DNA from: Siphonodentalium dalli
Taxonomy: Eukaryota > Mollusca > Scaphopoda > Gadilida > Siphonodentaliidae
Length of the DNA stretch: 64,000 nucleotides
NCBI GenBank assembly: GCA_032622095.1
Contig: CP136064.1
Span: forward strand, 264,805,165 to 264,869,164
Direction: 5' to 3'
The position numbers and the translations under genes were made by a program. Within the stretch, counting starts at the first letter, position 1, and each line of letters opens with the position of its first letter. A model generated the notes under the pieces. The model made no database searches. It was not told the DNA's origin and saw only the letters and a list, made by a program, of their open reading frames with translations. Positions 6,727 through 60,575 of the stretch are shown one piece after another.

Positions 6727-7292
6727 TCTCATATATATTTTGAAGACCTCTGTATGTTTGTCTGTATGTCTGTCTGTATGTCTGTCATTTATACAAATCT
6801 ACGATTCTCGACCGATCGGGACGAAACTTGGTACGTGTGTGTAGTTTGACCAGGCGGTCGACGTTGTCGTATTGGCGAGCCCGTGCGACGCACGTCCAGC
6901 GCATGCGCAGACGAGATCTCGGAAACGGGTGGAGCTATCGACTTGAAATTTGCTATGTGAATGTATCTTGCCCCGGTTACGAATTTTATCGGGTCGCCGA
7001 GCCCGTGCGACGCCAGTTTCGCGCATGCGCAGACGAGATCTCGGAAACGGGTGGAGCTATCGACTTGAAATTTGGTATGTGAATGTATCTTGCCCCGGAT
7101 ATGAATTTTATCGGGTCGCCGATCCCGTGCGACGCCAGCTTCGCGCATGCGCAGACCAGATCTCGGAAACGGGTAGAGCTATCGACTTGAAATTTGGTTT
7201 TTGAATAGCCCGGACAACGTCGGGCTGGGTAGAGCTATCGACTTGAAATTTGGTTTTTGAATAGCCCGGACAACGTCGGGCTCATCGGCTAG
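6727..7292 (+). mobile_element. Non-autonomous Helitron, family H1, unit 2
   Basis: It starts directly after the CTAG of unit 1 with no spacer and has the same 5' end. It carries three 122-bp core copies, and its terminal segment, including the 3' hairpin, is duplicated (about 7170-7225 and 7226-7292). It ends ATCGGCTAG. Confidence 0.85.
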
Positions 7293-7328
7293 TCTCATAT
7301 ATATTTTGAAGACCTCTGTTTGTTTGTT

Positions 7329-7360
<32 letters not shown>

Positions 7361-7818
7361 ATTAATACAAATCTACGATTCTCGACCGATCGGGACGAAA
7401 CTTGGTACGTGAGTGTAGTTTGACCAGGCGGTGAACGTTGTCGTATTGGCGAGCCCGTGCGGCGCCCGCTTCGCGCATGCGCAGACGAGATCTCGGAAAC
7501 GGGTGGAGCTATCGACTTGATATTTGGTATGTGAATGTATCTTGCCCCGGATACGAATTTTATCGGGTCACCGAGCCCGTGCGACGTCAGCTTCGCGCAT
7601 GCGCAGACGAGATCTCGGAAACGGGTGGAGCTATCGACTTGAAATTTGGTATGTGAATGTATCTTGCCCCGGATAAGAATTTTATCGGGTCGCCGAGCCC
7701 GTGCGACGCCAGCTTCGCGAATGCGCAGACCAGATCTCGGAAACGGGTAGAGCGATCGAAATTTGGTTTTTGAATAGCCCGGATGAATAGCCCGGACAAC
7801 GTCGGGCTCATCGGCTAG
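7293..7818 (+). mobile_element. Non-autonomous Helitron, family H1, unit 3
   Basis: It abuts unit 2. It has the same TCTCATATATATTTTGAAG start, a TTTG/TCTG microsatellite and three core copies. A small internal duplication of GAATAGCCCGGA lies before the terminal hairpin. It ends CTAG at 7815-7818. Confidence 0.85.
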
Positions 7819-8323
7819 TCTCATATATATTTTGAAGACCTCTGTCTGTATGTATGTTTGTTTGTTTGTCTGTCATTTATACAAATCTACGATTCTCGAC
7901 CGATCGGGAAGAAACTTGGTAATTGTGTGTAGTTTTACCAGGCGGTGGACGTTGTCGTATTGGCGAGCCCGTGCGGCGCCCGCTTCGCACATGCGCAGAC
8001 GAGATCTCGGAAACGGGTCGAGCTATCGACTTGAAATTTGCTATGTGAATGTATCTTGCCCCGGATACGAATTTTATCGGGTCGCCGAGCCCGTGCGCCG
8101 CCAGCTTCGCGCATGCGCAGACGAGATCTCGGAAACGGGTGGAGCTATCGACTTGAAATTTGCTATATGAATGTATCTTGCCCCGGATACGAATTGTATC
8201 GGTTCGTCGAGCCCGTGCGACGTCCGCTTCGCGCATGCGCAGACCAGATCTCGGAAACGGGTGGAGCTTCGACTTGAAATTTGGTTTTTGAATAGCCCGG
8301 ACAACGTCGGGCTCATCGGCTAG
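7819..8323 (+). mobile_element. Non-autonomous Helitron, family H1, unit 4
   Basis: It abuts unit 3. It has a short microsatellite, three core copies, the 3' hairpin and CTAG at 8320-8323. It is followed without spacer by an H2-family unit. Confidence 0.85.
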
Positions 8324-8686
8324 TCTATTATATATTTTGGAAGATCTGTTTGTGTGTGTGTGTGTCTGTCTGTCTGTGTGTTCGCGATGAACTCGAACAC
8401 GGCCGACCCGATTTCGATCTGTTTGTGTGTGTGTGTGTCTGTCTGTCTGTGTGTTCGCGATGAACTCGAACACGGCCGAGCCGATTTCGTGACCCCGACC
8501 AGACCTTGACCTTCAAAATAATCAATTCAAGGTCAAATCGGGTAAAACCGGATGGATTTCGACGGGCACGTTTGTTGGGTACTTTTGTCCGGGCAGTGTT
8601 TTTGGACTGGTCAAATCGTGACCCCACTTGACCTTGACCTTCAAAATGGACAATTCAAGGTCAAAGCCCGGACGGGTCACCTTCTA

Positions 8687-18574: not shown

Positions 18575-19140
18575 GTGAATTTAAAGTACGGTGTGGCTGA
18601 AGAGCGATATACCACTCTTTAGCACTGAGGGCTAAAGAACGATATAACGCTCTTTAGCGATGAGAGCTAAAGAGCGGTATACCGCTCTTTATAGTCGGAC
18701 ACTAAATATCGAGCAGTACGGATGATAATGTAAGACCGTTCTTTACAGGACAATGTATAGCTAAATAGCGGCATATACCGGTGTACACCACTCTTGTGTG
18801 TATGACAGGTACACCGTTCTTTGGCGTTTGTCACTAAAATAGCAGTATACCGTTCTTTAGCACCAACGCTGAAGAGCGGTATACCGTTCTTTAGCACCAA
18901 CCGTTACAGAGCGGTATACCGTTCTTTAGCGTATCAGGCCCATATAGCTAAAGAGTGGAATACCGTTCCTTTTTAGCATGTCAGGCCCATATAGCTAAAG
19001 AGCGGAATATCGCTGTTTAGCGTTTGGTACTAAAGAGCGGTATATCGCTGTTTAGCGTTTGGTACTAAAGAGCGGTATATCGCTGTTTAGCGTTTGGTAC
19101 TAAAGAGCGGTATACCGCTCTTTAGCCACGGTCTTTAAAG
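18575..19140. repeat. Minisatellite made of palindromic GAGCGGTATACCGCTC units
   Basis: More than ten copies of CTAAAGAGCGGTATACCGCT and close variants are present, each itself a palindrome. They are spaced by short linkers (TAGCACCAACGC, TCAGGCCCATATAG, GTTTGGTA). At 19030-19105 a 35-bp unit (GTTTAGCGTTTGGTACTAAA) is repeated exactly about three times. The block is bounded by related inverted ends (TTTAAAGTACGG.GTGGCT and AGCCACGGTCTTTAAA), so it may be a terminal-inverted-repeat element with an expanded core. Confidence 0.85.
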
Positions 19141-39953: not shown

Positions 39954-41702
39954 AGTTCCCCCCTCATATAATGACCAATAATTCCAAATATTATGGGTGG
40001 ATATTTGTGAAATTTCACACTTATTACAATGGTCCATTTACCAATATGATGCGCTTATTTGTGAACATATTCATAGCGACATGGTTTAATGAGCAGCAAG
40101 TAACCAAACAAGGGGTCAGTTTTAATTCTACAGAACATTTAATTCGTTGATTTCGGGTAAGGGAATTTGATTTTTGGAGTTCGTGACTGTTCAATATCTG
40201 GTGTAACTTCCGTGTCGATGCAGGAGGTGTTGACATCTTGCCCTCATGGTGTTCACAAGCTTTGCTACACGGTTTTGCGGAATTGCTGCCCATTCCTCTT
40301 GTAAAAGACGCCGCAGATCAACCATAGTGGTCCCCTCGTCAACTCGCCGGTAAACAACCCTCTTGAGTTGATCCCATAAGTGTTCGATGGGATTCAGATC
40401 GGGGGAATTTGCCGGCCATATCATTCGCTCGATCCCATTGGCAATCAGAAACTCGTTCACAACCCGGGCTCGGTGGGGGCGGGCATTGTCACCCGTAAGT
40501 ACGAGCTGGTTACCAGCCACCTGAGCCTGTATGATGAAATGTGGTAGGAGCACATCGTCCCGGTACATCACACCGTTGAGGTTGCCGTTGATCGGGACCA
40601 GTTCTGTCTTGGTACCAGCGCGAATCCCTTCCCAAACCACGACGCTGCCGCCACCATAAGCCGTCACTGGTTGAACACAACAGTCCGCGTGCTGCTCCCC
40701 GCGACGGCGACAAACTCGTCTTCTGCCATCAACATGTCGCAGACAAACCCTCGTCTCGTCGGTGAACAAGACGTTTGCCCATTGTCGTCTTGTCCAGCGT
40801 GCGTGATGTCTGGCTCAAGCCAACCTTGCTGCCTTGTGTCGCATCACGAGGGCTGCCCTTTTCACCAACCGCCGTATCCGGGCCCGTATCTGGGCACCAT
40901 GTAGCCGGTTCCGGATGGTCTGGCGGCTGAGTCTTCTGGCCCCTCTAACAGCGACTGTGTCCTGGTCTCGTATCTCTACAGCTGAACAACATGAGAATTA
41001 CCATAATTGGTTGCGTTACGAAAAAAATAAAATGGATATGTTCGCCCATTTGAATAACGAAAATGTCCTTCGCACATGTAAGTGACTGATGCCGTCAATG
41101 GGATAAACCTGTCATCGCGTGGTGCACATGTTGTCACTTTTGGACGCCCGCTCTTTGATCGATCCTTCACCGAACCAGTTTGCTGAAATTTCGCCCGTAG
41201 TTTCCGAATGGCATTCGGCGACACACCCATTCTCCGCGCTACCTGCTTTACTGGAGTATTTGCTTCCAAAAGCCCAATGGCAATCGCAAGATCCTGTTCT
41301 GTAAGGTGCGGCATCGTTGTGTGCATGAGATCGCACAAATTGAACTGAATCTGTATCCAAAAAAGTGGGGTGACATCGATTCCGTGCAATGCATCGGCCG
41401 CACCGTGACTACAGGTCAAATAGGGGATTTTCCTAATCTGTCGTTATAGCGATACCACCCAAGAGATAAAGAACGCGAGGGTAACCCATTTTTCGTCGAA
41501 GCTATGGACCTCAGAATGGTGAAGTGCGATTTCGTAAAAACATCATTTTCATCTTCAATTGTTGACCAGTCGAGCATGCAATGGACCAGAACATTTAAAT
41601 TTATGCTACACACTGGCAGAATGCTATAGAACATACATGTCAAATTACATCAATATCCGATCATTAATTCAGAAAATATCGGTCGTCATTTAGGGGGGAA
41701 CT
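39954..41702 (-). mobile_element. Tc1-like transposon, nearly complete
   Basis: Ends AGTTCCCCCCTCATATAAT and (inverted) AGTTCCCCCCTAAATGACGA are flanked by TA (39952-39953 and 41703-41704). It spans 1749 bp and contains one transposase on the minus strand. It sits at the middle of the palindromic MITE, so it is the younger insertion. Confidence 0.92.
40191..41314 (-). pseudogene. Tc1-family DD34E transposase, inactivated
   Basis: The start MPHLTEQDLAIAIGLLEANT at 41314 (an in-frame Met lies 4 codons upstream) gives the first helix-turn-helix, followed by RRMGVSPNAIRKLRAKFQQT. The second HTH region (RRLSRQTIRNRL) and the catalytic core follow: LFTDET (first Asp), LTGDNARPHRARV (second Asp) and SPDLNPIEHLWD (Glu). 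The last Asp and Glu are 34 residues apart, so it is DD34E. The protein ends GSYTRY at 40191, as in many Tc1 relatives. Two lesions are visible: a poorly matching, frame-shifted stretch between the HTHs (about 40980-41100) and an in-frame TGA at 40815-40817 where relatives usually have Trp. It would cut and paste DNA at TA targets if intact. Confidence 0.9.
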
Positions 41703-44350: not shown

Positions 44351-44920
44351 CTAGCCGATGAGCCCGACGTTGTCCGGGCTATTCAAAAACCAAATTTCAA
44401 GTCGATAGCTCTACCCAGCCCGACGTTGTCCGGGCTATTCAAAAACCAAATTTCAAGTCGATAGCTCCACCCGTTTCCGAGATCTGGTCTGCGCATGCGC
44501 GAAGCTGGCGTCGCACGGGCTCGGCGACCCGATAAAATTCGTATCCGGGGCAATATACATTCACATACCAAATTTCAAGTCGATAGCTCCACCCGTTTCC
44601 GATATCTCGTCTGCGCACGCGCGAAGCTGGCGTCGCACGGGCTCGGCGACCCGATAAAATTCGTATCCGGGGCAAGATACATTCACATACCAAATTTCAA
44701 GTCGATAGCTCCACCCGTTTCCGAGATATCGTCTGCGCATGCGCGAAGCGGGCGCCGCACGGGCTCGCCAATACGACAACGTCCACCGCCTGGTCAAACT
44801 ACACACACGTACCAAGTTTCGTCCCGATCGGTCGAGAATCGTAGATTTGTATAAATGACAAACATACAGACAAACATACAGACAAACATACAGACACAGG
44901 TCTTCAAAATATATATGAGA
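44351..44920 (-). mobile_element. Non-autonomous Helitron, family H1, reverse array unit 3
   Basis: The 5' end TCTCATATATATTTTGAAG lies at 44920. It has a TGTT/TCTG microsatellite, three 122-bp core copies, and a duplicated 3' segment with the hairpin AGCCCGGACAACGTCGGGCT, then CATCGGCTAG at 44351. The same terminal duplication occurs in the plus-strand unit 2. Confidence 0.85.
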
Positions 44921-45620
44921 CTAGAAGGTGACCCGACTTCGTCCGGGCTTTGACCTTGAATTGTCCATTTTGAAGGTCAAGTGGGGTCACGATTTGACCA
45001 GTCCAAAACACTGCCCGGACGAAAGTACCCGACAAACGTGCCCGTCGAAATCCATCCGGTTTTACCAGTTTTGACATTGAATTTATTATTTTGAAGGTCA
45101 AGGTCAGGTCGGGGGCACGATTTGACCCGTCCAAAACACTCAGTTGATAAAAGTACCCCCATGTATCAAATTTCGTCGAAATCCCATCAAAATTGGCGAT
45201 TTGACATTGAATTGACCCGATTTCAAGGTCAAGGTCACGTCGCACGGGCAAATGAATATGCTTATGAGACTCCCCATACGAATGTACCCCCGCATACCAA
45301 GTTTCATTGAAATCCCGTAATATTTGGGCATTTGACCTTGAAATGACCCGATTTCAAGGTCAAGGTCACGTCGCACGGACAAATTAATAGGTTTATGCCA
45401 CTCTCCGGCCGAAGATACCCACACATACCAAGTTTCATTGAAATCCCGTGACATTCGGGCGTTTGACCTTGAAGTTACCCGATTTCAAGGTCAAGGTCAC
45501 GTCGCACAGGCACATTAATAGGCCCATGCCACCCCCCGGCCGAAAATACCCCCACATACCAAGTTTCATCGAAATCGGCTGGGCCGTTTTCGAGTTCATC
45601 GCGAACACACACACACACAG

Positions 45621-45653
<33 letters not shown>

Positions 45654-45674
45654 TCTTCCAAAATATATAACAGA
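44921..45674 (-). mobile_element. Non-autonomous Helitron, family H2, reverse array unit 2
   Basis: The 5' end is a variant H2 (TCTGTTATATATTTTGGAAG). An (AC)n microsatellite lies at 45606-45650. The 3' hairpin and CTAG are at 44921. The junction with the next unit has lost the C of CTAG (reads CTA|TCTG on the minus strand). Confidence 0.8.
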
Positions 45675-46183
45675 TAGCCGATGAGCCCGACGTTGTCCGG
45701 GCTATTCAAAAACCAAATTTCAAGTCGATAGCTCCACCCGTTTCCGAGATCTGGTCTGCGCATGCGCGAAGCTGGCGTCGCACGGGCTCGGCGACCCGTT
45801 AAAATTCGTATCCGGGGCAAGATACATTCACATAGCAAATTTCAAGTCGATAGCTCCACCCGTTTCCGAGATCTCGTCTGCGCATGCGCGAAGCTGGCGT
45901 CGCACGGGCTCGGCGACCCGATAAAATTCGTATCCGGGGCAAGATACATTCACATAGCAAATTTCAAGTCGATAGCTCCACCCGTTTCCGAGATCTCGTC
46001 TGCGTATGCGCGAAGCGGGCGCCGCACGGGCTCGCCAATACGACAACGACGACCGCCTGGTAAAACTACACACACGTACCAAGTTTCGTCCCGATCGGTC
46101 GAGAATCGTAGATTTGTATTAATGACATACATACATACAGACAGACAGACAGACAGACAGAGGCCTTCAAAATATATATGAGA
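45675..46183 (-). mobile_element. Non-autonomous Helitron, family H1, reverse array unit 1
   Basis: It begins A|TCTCATATATATTTTGAAG on the minus strand (46183), the expected A before TC. It carries a (GTCT)n microsatellite and three core copies. Its 3' hairpin is intact but the terminal CTAG is trimmed. Confidence 0.82.
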
Positions 46184-47094: not shown

Positions 47095-47289
47095 TTACGA
47101 AAATATTTTTGTCAGTTTTGAATTCGCGCAGCACGGTGCGCGTATTCAAAGGGGCAGCGGCTATTCGCCATCGGATGGCAAATAGCGATTCTACCGATAT
47201 GCGCTATTTGCCATCCGATGGTATTTTAAAGAAAAGAAAACATATCATATCATCACAATACGCTATTATAATGATGATTCCTACCGCCT

Positions 47290-50200
47290 TCGTGATAATT
47301 AGGACCAGTTGACCGTCGGTTGACCACCTACATATATCCTGGGGGATGGCAAATAAGAAATCGACAATGTTGAAGGAAATTTCGTATAGTTTGAACATTT
47401 AGTGCCACAAGCTGTCGCTATATGGCCACATAATCACCATTTCTACCCGCCTTACTGAAAACCCGGACCAGTTGACCGTCGGTTGACCACCCACAGATAT
47501 CCTGGGGGATGGCAAATAAGAAATCGATCAATTTTGAAGGAAATTTCGTATAGTTTGAACATTTAGTGGCACAAGCTGTCGCTATATGGCCACATAATCA
47601 CCATTTCTACCCGCCTTACTGAAAACCCGGACCAGTTGACGGTCGGTTGATCACCCACAGATATCCTGGGGGATGGCAAATAAGAAATCGATCAATTTTG
47701 AAGGAAATTTCGTATAGTTTGAACATTTAGTGGCACAAGCTGTCGCTATATCGCCACATAATCACCATTTCTACCCGCCTTACTGAAAACACGGACCAGA
47801 TGACCGTCGGTTGACCACCCACAGATATCCTGGGGGGATGGCAAATAAGAAATCGACCAATTTTGAAGGAAATTTCGTATAGTTTGAACATTTAGTGGCA
47901 CAAGCTGTCGCTATATGGCCACATAATCACCATTTCTACCCGCCTTACTGAAAACCCGGACCAGTTGACCGTCGGTTAACCACCCACAGATATCCTGGGG
48001 GGATGGCAAATAAGAAATCGACCAATTTTGAAGGAAATTTCGTATAGTTTGAACATTTAGTCGCACAAGCTGTCGCTATATGGCCACATAATCACAATTT
48101 CTACCCGCCTTACTGAAAACCCGGACCAGTTGACCGTCGGTTGACCACCCACAGATATCCTGGGGGGATGGCAAATAAGAAATCGACCAACTTTGAAGGA
48201 AATTTCGTATAGTTTGAACATTTAGTGGCACAAGCTGTCGCTATATGGCCACATAATCACCATTTCTACCCGCCTTACTGAAAACCCGGACCAGTTGACC
48301 GTAGGTTGAAAACCCACAGATATCCTGGGGGAATGGCAAATAAGAAATCGACCAATTTTGAAGGAAATTTCATATAGTTTGAACATTTAGTGGCACAAGC
48401 TGTCGCTATATGGCCACATAATCACCATTTCTACCCGCCTTACTGAAAATCCGGACCAGCTGACCGTCGGTTGACCACCCACAGATATCCTGGGGGATGG
48501 CAAATAAGAAATCGACCAATTTTGAAGGAAATTTCGTATAGTTTGAACATTTAGTGGCACAAGCTGTCGCTATATCGCACATAATCACCATTTCTACCCG
48601 CCTTACTGAAAACCCGGACCAGTTGACCGTCGGTTGACCACCCACAGATATCTTGGGGGGGATGGCAAATAAGAAATCGACCAATTTTGAAGGAAATTTC
48701 GTATAGTTTGAACATTTAGTGGCACAAGCTGTCGCTATATGGCCACATACTCACCATTTCTACCCGCCTTACTGAAAACCCGGACCAGTTGACCGTCGGT
48801 TGACCACCCACAGATATCCTGGGGGGACGGCAAATAAGAAATCGACCAATTTTGAAGGAAATTTCGTATAGTTTGAACATTTAGTGGCACAAGCTGTCGC
48901 TATATGGCCACATAATCACCATTTCTACCCGCCTTACAGAAAACCCGGACCAGTTGACCGTCGGTTGACCACCCACAGATATCCTGGGGGGATGGCAAAT
49001 CAGAAATCGACCAATTTTGAAGGAAATTTCGTATAGTTTGAACATTTAGTCGCACAAGCTGTCGCTATATGGCCACATAATCACAATTTCTACCCGCCTT
49101 ACTGAAAACCCGGACCAGTTGACCGTCGGTTGACCACCCACAGATATCCTGGGGGATGGCAAATAAGAAATCGACCAATTTTGAAGGAAATTTCGTATAG
49201 TTTGAACATTTAGTGGGACAAGCTGTCGCTATATGGCCACATAATCACCATTTCTACCCGCCTTACTGAAAACCCGGACCAGTTGACCGTCGGTTGACCA
49301 CCCACAGATATCCTGGGGGGATGGCAAATAAGAAATCGACCAATTTTGAAGGAAATTTCGTATAGTTTGAACATTTAGTGGCACAAGCTGTCGCTATATG
49401 GCCACATAATCACCATTTCTACCCGCCTTACTGAAAACCCGGACCAGCTGACCGTCGGTTGACCACCCACATATATCCTGGGGGGATGGCAAATAAGAAA
49501 TCGACCAATTTTGAAGGAAATTTCGTATAGTTTGAACATTTAGTGGCACAAGCTGTCGCTATATGGCCACATAATCACCATTTCTACCCGCCTTACTGAA
49601 AACCCGGACCAGTTGACCGTCGGTTGACCACCCACAGATATCCTGGGGGGACGGCAAATAAGAAATCGACCAATTTTGAAGGAAATTTCGTATAGTTTGA
49701 ACATTTAGTGGCACAAGCTGTCGCTATATGGCCACATAATCACCATTTCTACCCGCCTTACAGAAAACCCGGACCAGTTGACCGTCGGTTGACCACCCAC
49801 AGATATCCTGGGGGGATGGCAAATAAGAAATCGACCAATTTTGAAGGAAATTTCGTATAGTTTGAACATTTAGTGGCACAAGCTGTCGCTATATGGCCAC
49901 ATAATCACCATTTCTACCCGCCTTACAGAAAACCCGGACCAGTTGACGGTCGGTTGATCACCCACAGATATCCTGGGGGATGGCAAATAAGAAATCGACC
50001 AATTTTGAAGGAAATTTCGTATAGTTTGAACATTTAGTGGCACAAGCTGTCGCTATATGGCCACATAATCACCATTTCTACCCGCCTTACTGAAAACACG
50101 GACCAGTTGACCGTCGGTTGACCACCCACAGATATCCTGGGGGGATGGCAAATAAGAAATCGACCAATTTTGAAGGAAATTTCGTATAGTTTGAACATTT

Positions 50201-52119
50201 AGTGGCACAAGCTGTCGCTATATGGCCACATAATCACCATTTCTACCCGCCTTACTGAAAACCCGGACCAGTTGACCGTCGGTTAACCACCCACAGATAT
50301 CCTGGGGGGATGGCAAATAAGAAATCGACCAATTTTGAAGGAAATTTCGTATAGTTTGAACATTTAGTCGCACAAGCTGTCGCTATATGGCCACATAATC
50401 ACAATTTCTACCCGCCTTACTGAAAACCCGGACCAGTTGACCGTCGGTTGACCACCCACAGATATCCTGGGGGGATGGCAAATAAGAAATCGACCAACTT
50501 TGAAGGAAATTTCGTATAGTTTGAACATTTAGTGGCACAAGCTGTCGCTATATGGCCAAATAATCACCATTTCTACCCGCCTTACTGAAAACCCGGACCA
50601 GCTGACCGTCGGTTGACCACCCACAGATATCCTGGGGGGATGGCAAATAAGAAATCGACCAATTTTGAAGGAAATTTCGTATAGTTTGAACATTTAGTGG
50701 CACAAGCTGTCGCTATATGGCCACATAATCACCATTTCTACCCGCCTTACTGAAAACCCGGACCAGCTGACCGTCGGTTGACCACCCACATATATCCTGG
50801 GGGGATGGCAAATAAGAAATCGACCAATTTTGAAGGAAATTTCGTATAGTTTGAACATTTAGTGGCACAAGCTGTCGCTATATCGCCACATAATCACCAT
50901 TTCTACCCGCCTTACTGAAAACACGGACCAGTTGACCGTCGGTTGACCACCCACAGATATCCTGGAGGGATGGCAAATAAGAAATCGACCAATTTTGAAG
51001 GAAATTTCGTATAGTTTGAACATTTAGTGGCACAAGCTGTCGCTATATGGCCACATAATCACCATTTCTACCCGCCTTACTGAAAACCCGGACCAGTTGA
51101 CCGTCGGTTAACCACCCACATATATCCTGGGGGGATGGCAAATAAGAAATCGACCAATTTTGAAGAAAATTTCGTATAGTTTGAACATTTAGTCGCAGAA
51201 GCTGTCGCTATATGGCCACATAATCACAATTTCTACCCGCCTTACTGAAAACCCGGACCAGTTGACCGTCGGTTGACCACCCACAGATATCCTGGGGGGA
51301 TGGCAAATAAGAAATCGACCAACTTTGAAGGAAATTTCGTATAGTTTGAACATTTAGTGGCACAAGCTGTCGCTATATGGCCACATAATCACCATTTCTA
51401 CCCGCCTTACTGAAAACCCGGACCAGTTGACCGTCGGTTGACAACCCACAGATATTCTGGGGGAATGGCAAATAAGAAATCGACCAATTTTGAAGGAAAT
51501 TTCATATAGTTTGAACATTTAGTGGCACAAGCTGTCGCTATATGGCCACATAATCACCATTTCTACCCGCCTTACTGAAAATCCGGACCAGCTGACCGTC
51601 GGTTGACCACCCACAGATATCCTGGGGGACGGCAAATAAGAAATCGACCAATTTTGAAGGAAATTTCGTATAGTTTGAACATTTAGTGGCACAAGCTGTC
51701 GCTATATCGCCACATAATCACCATTTCTACCAGCCTTACTGAAAACCCAGACCAGTTGACCGTCGGTTGACCACCCACATATATCCTGGGGGGATGGCAA
51801 ATAAGAAATCGACCAATTTTGAAGGAAATTTCGTATAGTTTGAACATTTAGTGGCACAAGCTGTCGCTATATGGCCACATAATCACCATTTCTACCCGCC
51901 TTACAGAAAACCCGGACCAGTTGACCGTCGGTTGACCACCCACAGATATCTTGGGGGGGATGGCAAATAAGAAATCGACCAATTTTGAAGGAAATTTCGT
52001 ATAGTTTGAACATTTAGTGGCACAAGCTGTCGCTATATGGCCACATACTCACCATTTCTACCCGCCTTACTGAAAACCCGGACCAGTGGACCGTCGGTTG
52101 ACCACCCACAGATATCCTG
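47290..52119 (-). repeat. 165-bp satellite array, left arm (~29 units)
   Basis: The unit contains AGTTGACCGTCGGTTGACCA, GGGATGGCAAATAAGAAATC, GTATAGTTTGAACATTTAGT and GCTGTCGCTATATGGCCACA. Starts of ATGGCAAATAAG at 47346, 47509, 47673, 47838 and 48003 give 163-165 bp, varying mainly in a G-run. A variant unit with TTAGTCGCACAAGC and ATCACAATTTC recurs at about 48060, 49048, 50368 and 51190, exposing larger internal duplications. Confidence 0.95.
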
Positions 52120-52965
52120 GGTTTTCAGTAAGGCGGGTAGAAATGGTGATTATGTGGCCATATAGCGACAGCTTGTGCCACTAAATGCTCAAACTATACG
52201 AAATTTCCTTCAAAATTGGTCGATTTCTTATTTGCCATCCCCCCAGGATATCTGTGGGTGGTCAACCGACGGTCAACTGGTCCGGGTTTTCAGTAAGGCA
52301 AGTAGAAATGGTGATTATGTGGCCATATAGCGACAGCTTGTGCCACCAAATGTTCAAACTATACGAAATTTCCTTCAAAATTGGTCGATTTCTTATTTGC
52401 CATCCCCCCAGGATATCTGTGGGTGGTCAACCGACGGTCAACTGGTCTGGGTTTTCAGTAAGGCGGGTAGAAATGGTGATTATGTGGCCATATAGCGACA
52501 GCTTGTGCCACTAAATGTTCAAACTATACGAAATTTCCTTCAAAATTGGTCGATTTCTTATTTGCCATCCCCCAGGATATCTGTGGGTGGTCAACCGACG
52601 GTCAACTGGTCCGGGTTTTCAGTAAGGCGGGTAGAAATGGTGATTATGTGGCCATATAGCGACAGCTTGTGCCACTAAATGTTCAAACTATACGAAATTT
52701 CCTTCAAAATTGGTCGATTTCTTATTTGCCATCCCCCCAGGATATCTGTGGGTGGTCAACCGACGGTCAACTGGTCCGGGTTTTCAGTAAGGCGGGTAGA
52801 AATGGTGATTATGTGGCCATATAGCGACAGCTTGTGCCACTAAATGTTCAAACTATACGAAATTTTCTTCAAAATTGGTCGATTTCTTATTTGCCATCCC
52901 CCCAGGATATATGTGGGTGGTCAACCGACGGTCAACTGGTCCGGGTTTTCAGTAAGGCGGGTCGA
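52120..52965 (+). repeat. 165-bp satellite array, right arm in opposite orientation (~5 units)
   Basis: At 52119/52120 the array flips: GATATCCTGG is followed directly by GTTTTCAGTAAGGCGGGTAG, the reverse complement of the usual preceding part. Five units follow, reaching the right terminal repeat. Because 165 is divisible by three, some frames run through two units; they are not genes. Confidence 0.95.
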
Positions 52966-53150
52966 AATGGTGATTATGATAGCGTATTGTGATGATATGA
53001 TATGTTTTCTTTTCTTTAAAATACCATCGGATGGCAAATAGCGCATATCGGTAGATTCGCTATTTGCCATCCGATGGCGAATAGACACTTCCCTTTGTCT
53101 ATTCAAAGTGCGCGAATTCAAAACTGAGCGAAAATAGTATTGCGCGAATT

Positions 53151-54028
53151 TAAATACGATTACGGTAGCCCCATTTTCCTCGAAAGTGGGGGTCTACAGG
53201 GTGGTTATTATGACGAATGGGACATTCATGTAAGTTACCTGTGAAACCACATGCGTGCAATTTGAAAAGTAATCAGTCAACCCATAGGGTTTCGGAAGCT
53301 TTCTCTTGAACTTAGTGGTACATAATATCGCTTGCATATCGTTCAGCAGTTAGTCGGTACGCTGTTCGAAATTTTGGACATTTTGTTTCTCGATTTTGAA
53401 TGTCAAGGACACATAAATAGGAATGACACCTTGGTTAAATTTTTTCAGCATACCTAAATTATGTCACCGGGGTTACCACCGTTCCGCGCAAATGCCGTTA
53501 AAGGTCTAATGTTGATTTACACTTTAAGAGCTTTTTGTTCGCCAAGACGCAATTGTTGCTCACAAAGTATTTATCTGATTTTATGGAAAATGACTTTTGC
53601 ACCAGCGATGATTCACTGAGTTTTTGTGTAACTGCACACATGCGTAAGATAAGATGAGATAAGATGAGATAAGAATCATAAGATGCGTGGAGATATTTTC
53701 CTTTACTAAGTAGGATGTACTACAGCATTACACACATCACAAGCTCTCAAACAATTTTGATCGGCTTGCGTGAAATTACACAAGCTTTCAGAAGACGATT
53801 TTTTGTATAACACTCCTATGCGCGATTTCCATTGAAAACGCCGTTAACTAAAAATGGTAATGTCACTAGTGAATTATGTCATTTCTTGTTACGTCATTGA
53901 CGTTACGCCGCTTACTGATCTTGACTGAAATTTAGCTGATTAATCTTTCTCCACTCGGGACTTTCATACATTAATTCTGTGTGTTTCAATCATATTTGGC
54001 GAACCAAATTGACGCAGAAGTGTAATAA
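53151..54028. other. Unassigned intron sequence with a small GATAAGAT repeat
   Basis: A (GATGAGATAA)n run lies at 53647-53685. Otherwise no repeat or exon was recognised. Confidence 0.4.
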
Positions 54029-58479: not shown

Positions 58480-58713
58480 TGAGGACCCGATCATCGTGTT
58501 CGTAATGAGGACCCGTTCATCGTGTTCGTAATGAGGACCCGATCACCGTGTTCGCAACGAGGACCCGATCATCGTGTTCGTAATGAGGACCCGATCATCG
58601 TGTTCGTAATGAGGACCCGATCATCGTGTTCGTAACGAGGACCCGATCACCGTGTTCGTAATGAGGACCCGATCATCGTGTTCGTAATGAGGACCCGATC
58701 ATCGTGTTCGTAA
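58480..58713. repeat. 26-bp minisatellite, about 9 units
   Basis: The unit is GAGGACCCGATCATCG + TGTTCGTAAT, with occasional T/A, A/G and T/C changes. It runs directly into the 22-bp array. Confidence 0.95.
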
Positions 58714-60575
58714 TGCATCTTTCTGGGACATATAATGCGTCTTCCTGTGACATATAATGCGTCTTTCTGGGACATATAATGCGTCTTTCTGGGACATATA
58801 ATGCGTCTTTCTGGGACATATACTGTGTCTTTCTGGGACATATAATGTGTCTTCCTGGGACATATAATGTGTCTTTCTGTGACATATACTGTGTCTTTCT
58901 GGGACATATAATGTGTCTTCCTGGGACATATAATGTGTCTTTCTGTGACATATAATGTGTCTTTCTGGGACATATAATGCGTTTTTCTGGGACATATAAT
59001 GTGTCTTTCTGGGACATATAATGCGTCTTTCTGGGACATATAATGCGTCTTTCTGGGACATATATTGTGTCTTCCTGTGACATATACTGTGTCTTTCTGG
59101 GACATATGTGTCTTTCTGGGACATATAATTCGTCTTTTTGGGACATATACTGCGTCTTTCTGGGACATATAATGCGTCTTTCTGGGACATATAATGTGTC
59201 TTTCTGGGACATATAATGTGTCTTTCTGTGACATATAATGTGTCTCATATAATGCGTCTTTCTGGGACACATACTGCGTCTTTCTGGGACATATAATGCG
59301 TCTTTCTGGGACATATAATGTGTCTTTCTGGGACATATAATGTGTCTTTCTGGGATATACTGCGTCTTTCTGGGACATATAATGCGTCTTTCTGTGACAT
59401 ATAATGCGTCTTTCTGGGACATATAATGTGTCTTTCTGGGACATATAATGTGTCTTCCTGGGACATATAATGTGTCTTTCTGTGACATATAATGTGTCTT
59501 TCTGGGACATATAATGCGTTTTTGCTGGGACATATAATGTGTCTTTCTGGGACATATAATGCGTCTTTCTGGGACATATAATGTGTCTTCCTGGGACATA
59601 TATTGTGTCTTCCTGTGACATATACTGTGTATTTCTGGGACATATGTGTCTTTCTGGGACATATAATTCGTCTTTCTGGGACATATACTGCGTCTTTCTG
59701 GGACATATAATGCGTCTTTCTGGGACATATAATGTTTCTTTCTGGGACATATGTGTCTTTCTGGGACATATAATGTGTCTTCCTGTGACATATAATGTGT
59801 CTTTCTGTGACATATAATGTGTCTTTCTGGGACATATAATGCGTCTTTCTGAGACATATAATGTGTCTTTCTGGGACATATAATTCGTCTTTGTGGGGCA
59901 TAATGTGTATTCCTGTGTCTTTCTGGGACATATAATGTGTTTTCCTGGCACATATAATGCGTTTTTCTGGGACATATAATGCGTCTTTCTGTGACATATA
60001 ATGCGTCTTCCTGTGACATATGTGTCTTTCTGGGACATATAATGTGTCTTTCTGGGACATATACTGCGTCTTTCTGAGACATATAATGTGTCTTTCTGTG
60101 ACATATAATGCGTCTTTCTGAGACATATAATGTGTCTTTCCGGGACATATAATGCGTCTTTCTGGGACATATAATGCGTCTTTCTGGGACATATAATGTG
60201 TCTTTCTGGGACATATAATGTGTCTTTTTGTGACATACATGTATAATGCATCTTTCTGGGACATATAATGCGTCTTTCTGGGACATATAATGTGTCTTTC
60301 TGGGACATATAATATGTCTTCCTGGGACATAATTGTCTTTCTGGGACATATAATTTGTCTTCCTGTGACATATGTGTCTTTCTGGGACATATAATGTGTC
60401 TTTCTGGGACATATAATGCGTCTTTCTGGGACATATCATGCGTCTTTCTGGGACATATAATGCGTCTTTCTGTGACATATAATGCGTCTTTCTGGGACAT
60501 ATAATGTGTCTTCCTGTGACATATAATGTGTCTTTCTGGGACATATAATGCGTCTTTCTGTGACATATAATGCTC
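58714..60575. repeat. 22-bp minisatellite, about 84 units
   Basis: The unit is TCTTTCTGGGACATATAATG + (C/T)G, with G/T at the GGGA/GTGA position and occasional truncated 16-bp units (GGGACATATGTGTC). It contains no stop in any minus frame. 22 nt is not a multiple of three, so the three frames carry the same 22-residue cycle (for example MSQKDALYVPERRIICPRKT). The resulting 381-666-codon frames are therefore products of the repeat. Confidence 0.95.

What the first reader, a model, noticed from the sequence alone, without database searches (positions are those of the whole stretch)
47095..53150. Transposon-like element whose whole interior is a satellite that flips orientation
About 190-bp terminal inverted repeats enclose ~29 units one way and ~5 units the other, with the switch at 52119/52120. 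The element is one huge palindrome with unequal arms. GATGGCAAATA is shared between the terminal repeat hairpin and the monomer, hinting that the satellite arose from the element's own end. It may show how a MITE seeds satellite DNA.
Basis: partly seen in the sequence, partly recalled or inferred. Interest (0 to 1): 0.8.

Follow-up and report, generated by a model that had tools for sequence, protein, structure and literature searches.

The report
Foldback transposon with expandable satellite arms
The satellite that changes direction is a mobile DNA element whose two ends each carry a stack of 165-base repeats pointing inward, one of many relatives in this genome, and it shows how such elements can breed satellite DNA.

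Summary
The flip is real: 29 units of 163-166 bp run + (47302-52121) and 5 run − (52119-52978), meeting at a 3-bp GGG overlap. Genome-wide copies place the element at 47153-53092; the outer ~50 bp of its 'terminal repeat' is a separate common palindromic repeat it inserted into.

It is a non-autonomous foldback transposon with two distinguishable ends (A: GGCAGCGGC…, B: GGAAGTGTC…), each with a hairpin followed by an inward-facing satellite arm. Exact ends: 126 A, 122 B. Of 62 inward-facing pairs among the listed ends, 61 are A-B, spanning 368 bp to 49 kb. Seventeen independent insertions have perfect 9-bp target duplications. Some copies keep a middle domain.

Flip points differ in all 14 copies compared, with short overlaps or filler, so most were probably made separately by joining the arms after loss of the middle. 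Read copies of one contig-7 insertion have an A arm of none to at least 53 units. Six of 19 sampled array clusters, in two contexts, lack any end.

Closest known: Tetris and Tm1. New member of a known kind; transposase source not found.

The parts
47153..53092 (+). whole foldback element, end A to end B (5940 bp)
   Evidence: end motifs fixed by perfect 9-bp duplications in other copies; A at G000:C4:264852317 and B at 264858256; span 5940
47143..47151 (+). left copy of probable target duplication TATTCAAAG (one extra G, 47152, before end A)
   Evidence: a 9-bp match in the same offset space in 9 of 2000 random pairs
53100..53108 (+). right copy of probable target duplication TATTCAAAG (seven extra bases 53093-53099 after end B)
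47153..47301 (+). end A terminal repeat: asymmetric tip, hairpin, AT-rich spacer, degenerate monomer edge (47267-47301)
   Evidence: 98-100% in the A ends of 20 other fetched loci; alignment; edge resembles monomer, 2 of 3000 shuffles
52979..53092 (-). end B terminal repeat; in this copy its inner edge carries monomer sequence instead of the usual degenerate edge
   Evidence: alignment of 19 A and 9 B ends; of the 9 B ends the window and L011 show the monomer version
47168..47221 (+). hairpin of end A containing GGATGGCAAATAGCG and its complement
   Evidence: 131-nt stretch, z -8.7
53024..53077 (-). hairpin of end B
   Evidence: 121-nt stretch, z -8.7
47302..52121 (+). A arm: 29 full 163-166 bp units plus 42 nt
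52119..52978 (-). B arm: 5 full units plus partial
52119..52121 (.). flip junction, 3-bp overlap GGG, A phase 42 to B phase 165
47095..47151 (+). left part of the palindromic host repeat that was the target
53109..53160 (+). right part of the same host repeat

Best explanation
It is a non-autonomous foldback-type DNA transposon, probably moved by a Mutator-like transposase supplied from elsewhere. Each end consists of a short tip and hairpin followed by an inward-facing array of 165-bp repeats. Shown: the two ends, the 9-bp target duplications, the multi-copy dispersal, the inward orientation, a shared middle domain in some copies, and large differences of arm length, also between copies of one insertion. 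Inferred: the arms grow and shrink by unequal exchange or slippage during repair; the middle is lost when repair of the gap left by excision copies inward from both ends and stops early, the two unfinished arms being joined by short matches or filler, which creates the flip. The monomer is probably related by descent to the element's own terminal repeat. Some arrays later stand alone as ordinary satellite.
For: Perfect 9-bp duplications at 17 independent insertions (0 of 768 shifted controls). 61 of 62 inward-facing neighbouring end pairs are A-B (listed ends only: first 100 of 126 A plus 4, first 100 of 122 B). Opposed arms in further copies. Middle sequence related among L022, L027, L024/L025, L012, L009, L013. 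14 of 14 flip points have different phase pairs: 7 with 2-5 bp overlap, 2 with 0-1, 5 with 1-19 bp filler. In 10 of 13 copies with both arms, between-arm divergence is at most 1.25 times same-arm divergence; mean within-copy 4.1%, between-copy 6.1% over 25 loci. Copies of one contig-7 insertion share flanks at 93.8-100%, yet the A arm is missing (L024, L025, L061, L062) or at least 53.8 units (L023, L026); TSD TAAAAATAC is seen on both sides in L024, L025, L027, L061, L062. Blocks of units recur within the window's A arm. Tetris and Tm1 show the same design.
Against: No transposase was found: 10 open frames gave no Pfam match above cut-off, and of 150 scored MULE-domain matches (813 candidates) only 1 lay within 100 kb of 189 listed ends, outside the element there. 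The mobiliser is thus inferred from duplication length and analogy; Merlin was not tested (search did not complete). The gap-repair step rests on junction shape only; ordinary end joining after breakage would look alike. L045 and L047 flips lie within 4 bp and may share an origin. In L013, L015 and L032 the arms differ from each other clearly more than within an arm. The window copy has 1 and 7 unexplained bases between its ends and its duplication. One pair is B-B (C5:1959479-1967673), still with a perfect duplication. L012 has opposed arrays but no B end in the 2.4 kb read beyond.
Confidence: 0.85

Rival explanations
1. Palindrome by snap-back: a replication fork switched onto its own strand once, copying the A arm backwards to make the B arm.
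For: The centre is a near-perfect inverted repeat with a short loop of about 40 nt and a 3-bp overlap.
Against: Each arm ends in its own terminal motif (A or B) with the same edge. Mirror-image units next to the flip were the best register in only 1 of 9 testable copies (L020, two units); in L032 register zero was slightly better than the mean of the others. Loop lengths over 14 copies scatter from 16 to 141 nt modulo 165. Later homogenisation could hide an old mirror.
Confidence: 0.06
2. A satellite captured between two transposon ends (as proposed for the Xenopus element miDNA4, described in the review PMC12628747, passages), with no ancestral link to the terminal repeat.
For: Arrays without ends exist (L042/L043, L037-L041). 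The similarity of the terminal hairpin to the monomer is modest (78 of 3000 shuffles) and a more permissive alignment is not significant (426 of 3000).
Against: The degenerate monomer edge belongs to the conserved terminal repeat at both ends; 13 of 19 sampled array clusters have an end nearby.
Confidence: 0.2
3. Helitron/Helentron-type carrier of satellite, as in oysters.
For: Such carriers with ~165-bp monomers are described in the Pacific oyster (PMC8268682, passages).
Against: Inverted terminal repeats and perfect 9-bp duplications at 17 insertions do not fit Helitron insertion as I recall it.
Confidence: 0.01
4. Assembly artefact at a repeat flip.
For: Long inverted repeats are prone to misassembly; no reads were available.
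Against: Short copies (L015 1771 bp, L045 1144, L046 2172, L047 2328) show the same two-arm order with intact flanks and duplications.
Confidence: 0.03

Closest known systems
Tetris foldback transposon and its TIR-220 repeats, Drosophila virilis (PMC4079207; passages and part 1 of the Discussion read)
   Same: Flanking domain plus tandem ~220-bp repeats in each inverted end; variable repeat number; 8-10 bp duplications; short similarity between flanking domain and repeat (37 bp, ~80%); long arrays grown inside the element; no transposase found.
   Different: Here a 165-bp unit, strong hairpins in each tip, two distinguishable ends, many more complete copies (three structurally complete Tetris copies are reported), a set of differing flip junctions, and one insertion with A arms from none to at least 53 units. 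Sequence relationship not tested.
Tm1 Mutator/Foldback elements, root-knot nematodes (PMC3169594; abstract and passages read)
   Same: 9-bp duplications, asymmetric short motifs at the two outer tips, tandem repeats in the inverted ends.
   Different: Tm1 repeats are ~14 bp; a Tm1 copy encodes a Phantom-like Mutator transposase, none was found here.
Galileo, Drosophila (PMC3573991, passages; PMC3688188, abstract and passages)
   Same: Long ends with tandem repeats whose number differs between the two ends of one copy.
   Different: P superfamily; about 210-bp repeats in two or three copies; no satellite-length arms in the passages read.
Helitron/Helentron-carried satellites of oysters (PMC8268682, passages; PMC7492417, search listing only)
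   Same: Monomers of about 165 bp dispersed by a mobile element.
   Different: By recall, no 9-bp duplication and no long inverted arms.

Membership tests
Foldback elements (structural class) | long inverted ends built of tandem repeats | tested here: met
Foldback elements (structural class) | repeat number varies between ends and copies | tested here: met
Foldback elements (structural class) | target duplications, 8-10 bp in Tetris and Tm1 | tested here: met
   17 perfect 9-bp cases; L033 8 of 9; window 9 bp but offset by 1 and 7 bases; L029 could not be judged
Mutator superfamily | duplication of about 9 bp (range recalled) | tested here: met
   not exclusive to Mutator
Mutator superfamily | MULE transposase in an autonomous element with the same ends | tested here: inconclusive
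   MULE domains abundant in the genome (150 scored of 813 candidates) but none of the 150 inside an element with listed ends; MULE flanks could not be fetched
Tetris family | sequence homology to Tetris ends or TIR-220 | not tested
   no Tetris sequence was available in the calls
P superfamily (Galileo) | 7-8 bp duplication (recalled) | tested here: not met
   9 bp in all 17 perfect cases
Merlin superfamily | 8-9 bp duplication (recalled) | tested here: met
   not exclusive to Merlin
Merlin superfamily | IS1595-type transposase in an element with the same ends | not tested
   search for PF12762 did not complete
Helitron/Helentron | no target duplication, no long inverted ends (recalled) | tested here: not met
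MITE | short non-coding element with inverted ends | tested here: inconclusive
   a 368-bp copy fits, but the 37 dispersed pairs have a median span of 7.1 kb

The most novel reading that the evidence does not exclude
A foldback element works as a renewable satellite factory: every loss of its middle fuses the two inward arrays at a fresh point, the arms then expand from none to tens of units within one insertion, and arrays that lose their ends become free satellite. The monomer itself descends from the element's own terminal repeat.
Probability: 0.45. Interest if true: 0.62.

Novelty: new member of a known kind. Interest (0 to 1): 0.5.

Why it matters
The authors of Tetris asked whether the repetitive build of foldback elements makes them prone to start new satellites (PMC4079207, part of the Discussion read). 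This family gives an independent case in another genome, with over a hundred exact copies of each end, end-to-end spans from 368 bp to 49 kb, a series of differing flip junctions, and a single insertion present in copies with very different arm lengths. That makes several stages (short arms, long arms, middle kept or lost, arrays without ends) directly comparable in one genome.

Tried and rejected
Reading the 8-bp direct repeat CGAAAATA (47098-47105, 53129-53136) as the target duplication: rejected, because other copies end inside it and it lies in the host repeat. Whole terminal repeat as an ancient full monomer: a permissive gapped alignment is not significant (426 of 3000 shuffles). Transposase in the middle domain: 10 open frames from L018, L012, L022, L027, L009 had no Pfam match above cut-off; two of them gave weak matches below cut-off to unrelated families. 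Not every frame of the middles was tried. Exact-pattern scans of viral contigs for monomer and hairpin: nothing. A DNA search with one monomer returned nothing, probably because its words are too common, so a 33-mer pattern was counted instead: 3890 exact matches; 49% of units in 13 loci carry it, suggesting very roughly 7,900 units. Literature searches for a prior description or for the mechanism; only open-licence papers are held, so an earlier description elsewhere cannot be excluded. The gap-repair model is recalled; for it I saw only the listing.

Organism: not identified; the genome has 2.2 Gb in 9 contigs.
Full report
Observation. Tandem Repeats Finder gives two abutting arrays of period 165: 47302-52121 (29.3 copies) and 52119-52978 (5.2 copies, opposite strand). 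Cutting at GGACC gives 29 full units of 163-166 bp plus 42 nt, then 5 full units of 164-165 bp plus a partial. The arms pair as inverted repeats up to 860 nt at 98%. At the flip the A arm stops at monomer phase 42, the B arm starts at phase 165, with GGG shared. The strand folds strongly there (z -13.4) and at both terminal hairpins (z -8.7 each), but not over 145 nt of one unit (z -1.35).

Boundaries. The window lies at G000:C4:264805165-264869164 of a 2.2-Gb genome in 9 contigs. In the 40 scored candidates (of 1797), the left terminal repeat matches other places only from about window 47144-47153 inward, most from 47152/47153. Two ends can be told apart: A begins GGCAGCGGC, B begins GGAAGTGTC; both then share TATTCGCCATCGGATGGCAAATAG and a hairpin, with single-base variants (19 A and 9 B ends aligned, the A ends of L012 and L014 dropped because the exact anchor was not found). 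In other copies these tips directly abut perfect 9-bp duplications: L011, L013, L015, L020, L022, the contig-7 insertion (L024, L025, L027, L061, L062), L044-L049, and the end pairs L050/51, L052/53, L054/55, L056/57, L058/59. That is 17 independent insertions; shifted controls gave 0 of 768. L033 has 8 of 9; the A end of L029 was not found. Copies with only one end in the fetched stretch were not scored. The window copy has TATTCAAAG at 47143-47151 and 53100-53108, with 1 extra base on the left and 7 on the right; such a match in that offset space occurred in 9 of 2000 random pairs. Joining the flanks restores a palindrome, CAGTTTTGAATTCGCGCA … TGCGCGAATTCAAAACTG, and the joined 109 nt match 40 of 40 scored places (1910 candidates) at 94-97%, often with one base more than my join (five further short reverse-strand matches are the palindrome matching itself).

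The family. Exact 35-mers at the tips occur 126 times (A, either of two bases at one position) and 122 times (B). From the listed ends (first 100 of each plus 4 A ends), neighbours less than 60 kb apart and facing inward are A-B in 61 of 62 cases, B-B in 1; 8 further neighbour pairs did not face inward. Thirty-seven dispersed pairs span 368 bp to 27.9 kb, median 7.1 kb; 25 pairs lie on contig 7 between 18.6 and 24.4 Mb and span 2.7 to 49.1 kb. The interiors of most pairs were not read. Copies that were read show + units from one end and − units from the other where both ends fell in the stretch, except that L024, L025, L061 and L062 have lost the A-arm array and L044 holds about 0.9 unit and a shortened B repeat. 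L012 has opposed arrays but no B end within the 2.4 kb read beyond. L022, L027, L024/L025, L012, L009 and L013 hold related non-satellite middle sequence, so the window's all-satellite interior is probably a state reached by losing the middle.

How the flip arises. In 14 copies oriented A to B, the pair of monomer phases at the flip differs in every one; L045 and L047 are within 4 bp and may share an origin. Seven have 2-5 bp overlap, two 0-1 bp, five 1-19 bp of filler. This fits separate end joining of two inward arrays. A single snap-back copy would make units mirror each other across the flip; register zero was the best in 1 of 9 testable copies (L020, two units); L048 had too few units. 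L011 has a further small inverted piece and two + to − junctions with the same sequence, so a junction can itself be duplicated. I infer interrupted gap repair after excision as the most likely source of the joins; junction shape alone cannot separate it from ordinary breakage and joining.

How the arms change length. Mean divergence between units is 4.1% within and 6.1% between 25 loci (not all independent: L023, L026 and L027 belong to one insertion; L037 and L042 have no end). Between the arms of one copy it is at most 1.25 times the same-arm value in 10 of 13 copies; L013, L015 and L032 differ more. In the window's A arm, runs of variants recur in blocks: those of units 5-9 reappear among units 24-29, and those of 5-6 also at 19-20. 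On contig 7 the eight copies read share A-side flanks at 93.8-100%, and where both sides were read the same duplication, so they are copies of one insertion made by amplification of the region. Yet the A arm is missing in L024, L025, L061 and L062, 7.2 units in L028, 13.4 in L027 and at least 53.8 in L023 and L026.

Origin of the monomer. A 12-bp exact match inside a 26-bp block links hairpin and monomer (78 of 3000 shuffles as good; a permissive alignment of the whole is not significant, 426 of 3000), and the 35-bp inner edge of the terminal repeat is a degenerate monomer end (2 of 3000). That edge is present at nearly all A and B ends aligned. In the window and L011 the B edge has been replaced by the ordinary monomer sequence, which looks like conversion from the array. 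This favours a link by descent but does not show its direction.

Arrays without ends. The first 100 listed of 3890 exact 33-mer matches form 19 clusters on contigs 1 and 2. Thirteen have an end nearby (seen in sequence for L020 and L029-L036, by end coordinates for four more). Six do not: five (L037-L041) are copies of one repeat holding 3.1 units, and one is an array of about 7.2 kb (its middle not read) with no end within 1.9 kb on one side and 1.4 kb on the other (L042, L043).

Mobiliser. Nine-base duplications and the analogy with Tm1 and Tetris point to the Mutator superfamily. MULE domains are common in the genome (150 scored of 813 candidates), but only 1 of the 150 lies within 100 kb of 189 listed ends (114 A, 75 B; most contig-7 B ends and the unlisted ends were left out), 12.4 kb from a complete element and outside it. 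Ten open frames from middles and from sequence beside an arm had no transposase match. The partner is therefore unknown, and Merlin was not tested.

Comparison. Tetris (PMC4079207, passages and part 1 of the Discussion read) has the same build: flanking domain, tandem ~220-bp repeats in both ends, 8-10 bp duplications, 37 bp shared between flank and repeat, arrays grown inside the element. Tm1 (PMC3169594, abstract and passages) has 9-bp duplications and asymmetric tip motifs. Galileo (PMC3573991, passages; PMC3688188, abstract and passages) shows unequal repeat numbers between ends and transposase binding in such repeats. This family is thus a new member of a known kind, unusually rich in comparable copies.

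Noticed in passing
window 6876-8489 and 44361-46034: Arrays of a 122-bp unit (with 56-bp and 131-bp relatives) on opposite strands, 90-96% alike in the eight pieces shown, about 36 kb apart: another inverted pair of tandem arrays, perhaps another foldback-like or composite element.
   Followed up: partly
G000:C7:18662592-24446825: 25 A-B pairs of this family over nearly 6 Mb; the eight copies read share flanks and look like one insertion amplified with its surroundings.
   Followed up: partly
G000:C4:148723547-148746052: Six A ends in a row on the same strand 2.4-9.3 kb apart before one B end, suggesting A tips caught up in tandem duplication.
   Followed up: no
G000:C5:1959479-1967673: A B-B pair with a perfect 9-bp duplication (ATTATATAA), so two B ends seem able to move together.
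   Followed up: partly
window 47095-47151 and 53109-53160: Host palindromic repeat family with 1910 candidate places in the genome, 40 scored.
   Followed up: partly
window 58711-60572: 22-bp repeats TAATGTGTCTTTCTGGGACATA with a 666-residue low-complexity open frame on the minus strand.
   Followed up: no
window 18595-19126: Three small arrays of 34-35 bp units that look palindromic.
   Followed up: no
window 40191-40769: DDE_3 endonuclease domain on the minus strand, a Tc1/mariner-like remnant by recall.
   Followed up: no
L018 5165-8294: Minus-strand open frames of up to 347 residues next to an A arm, without Pfam match above cut-off; possibly another element or a gene.
   Followed up: partly
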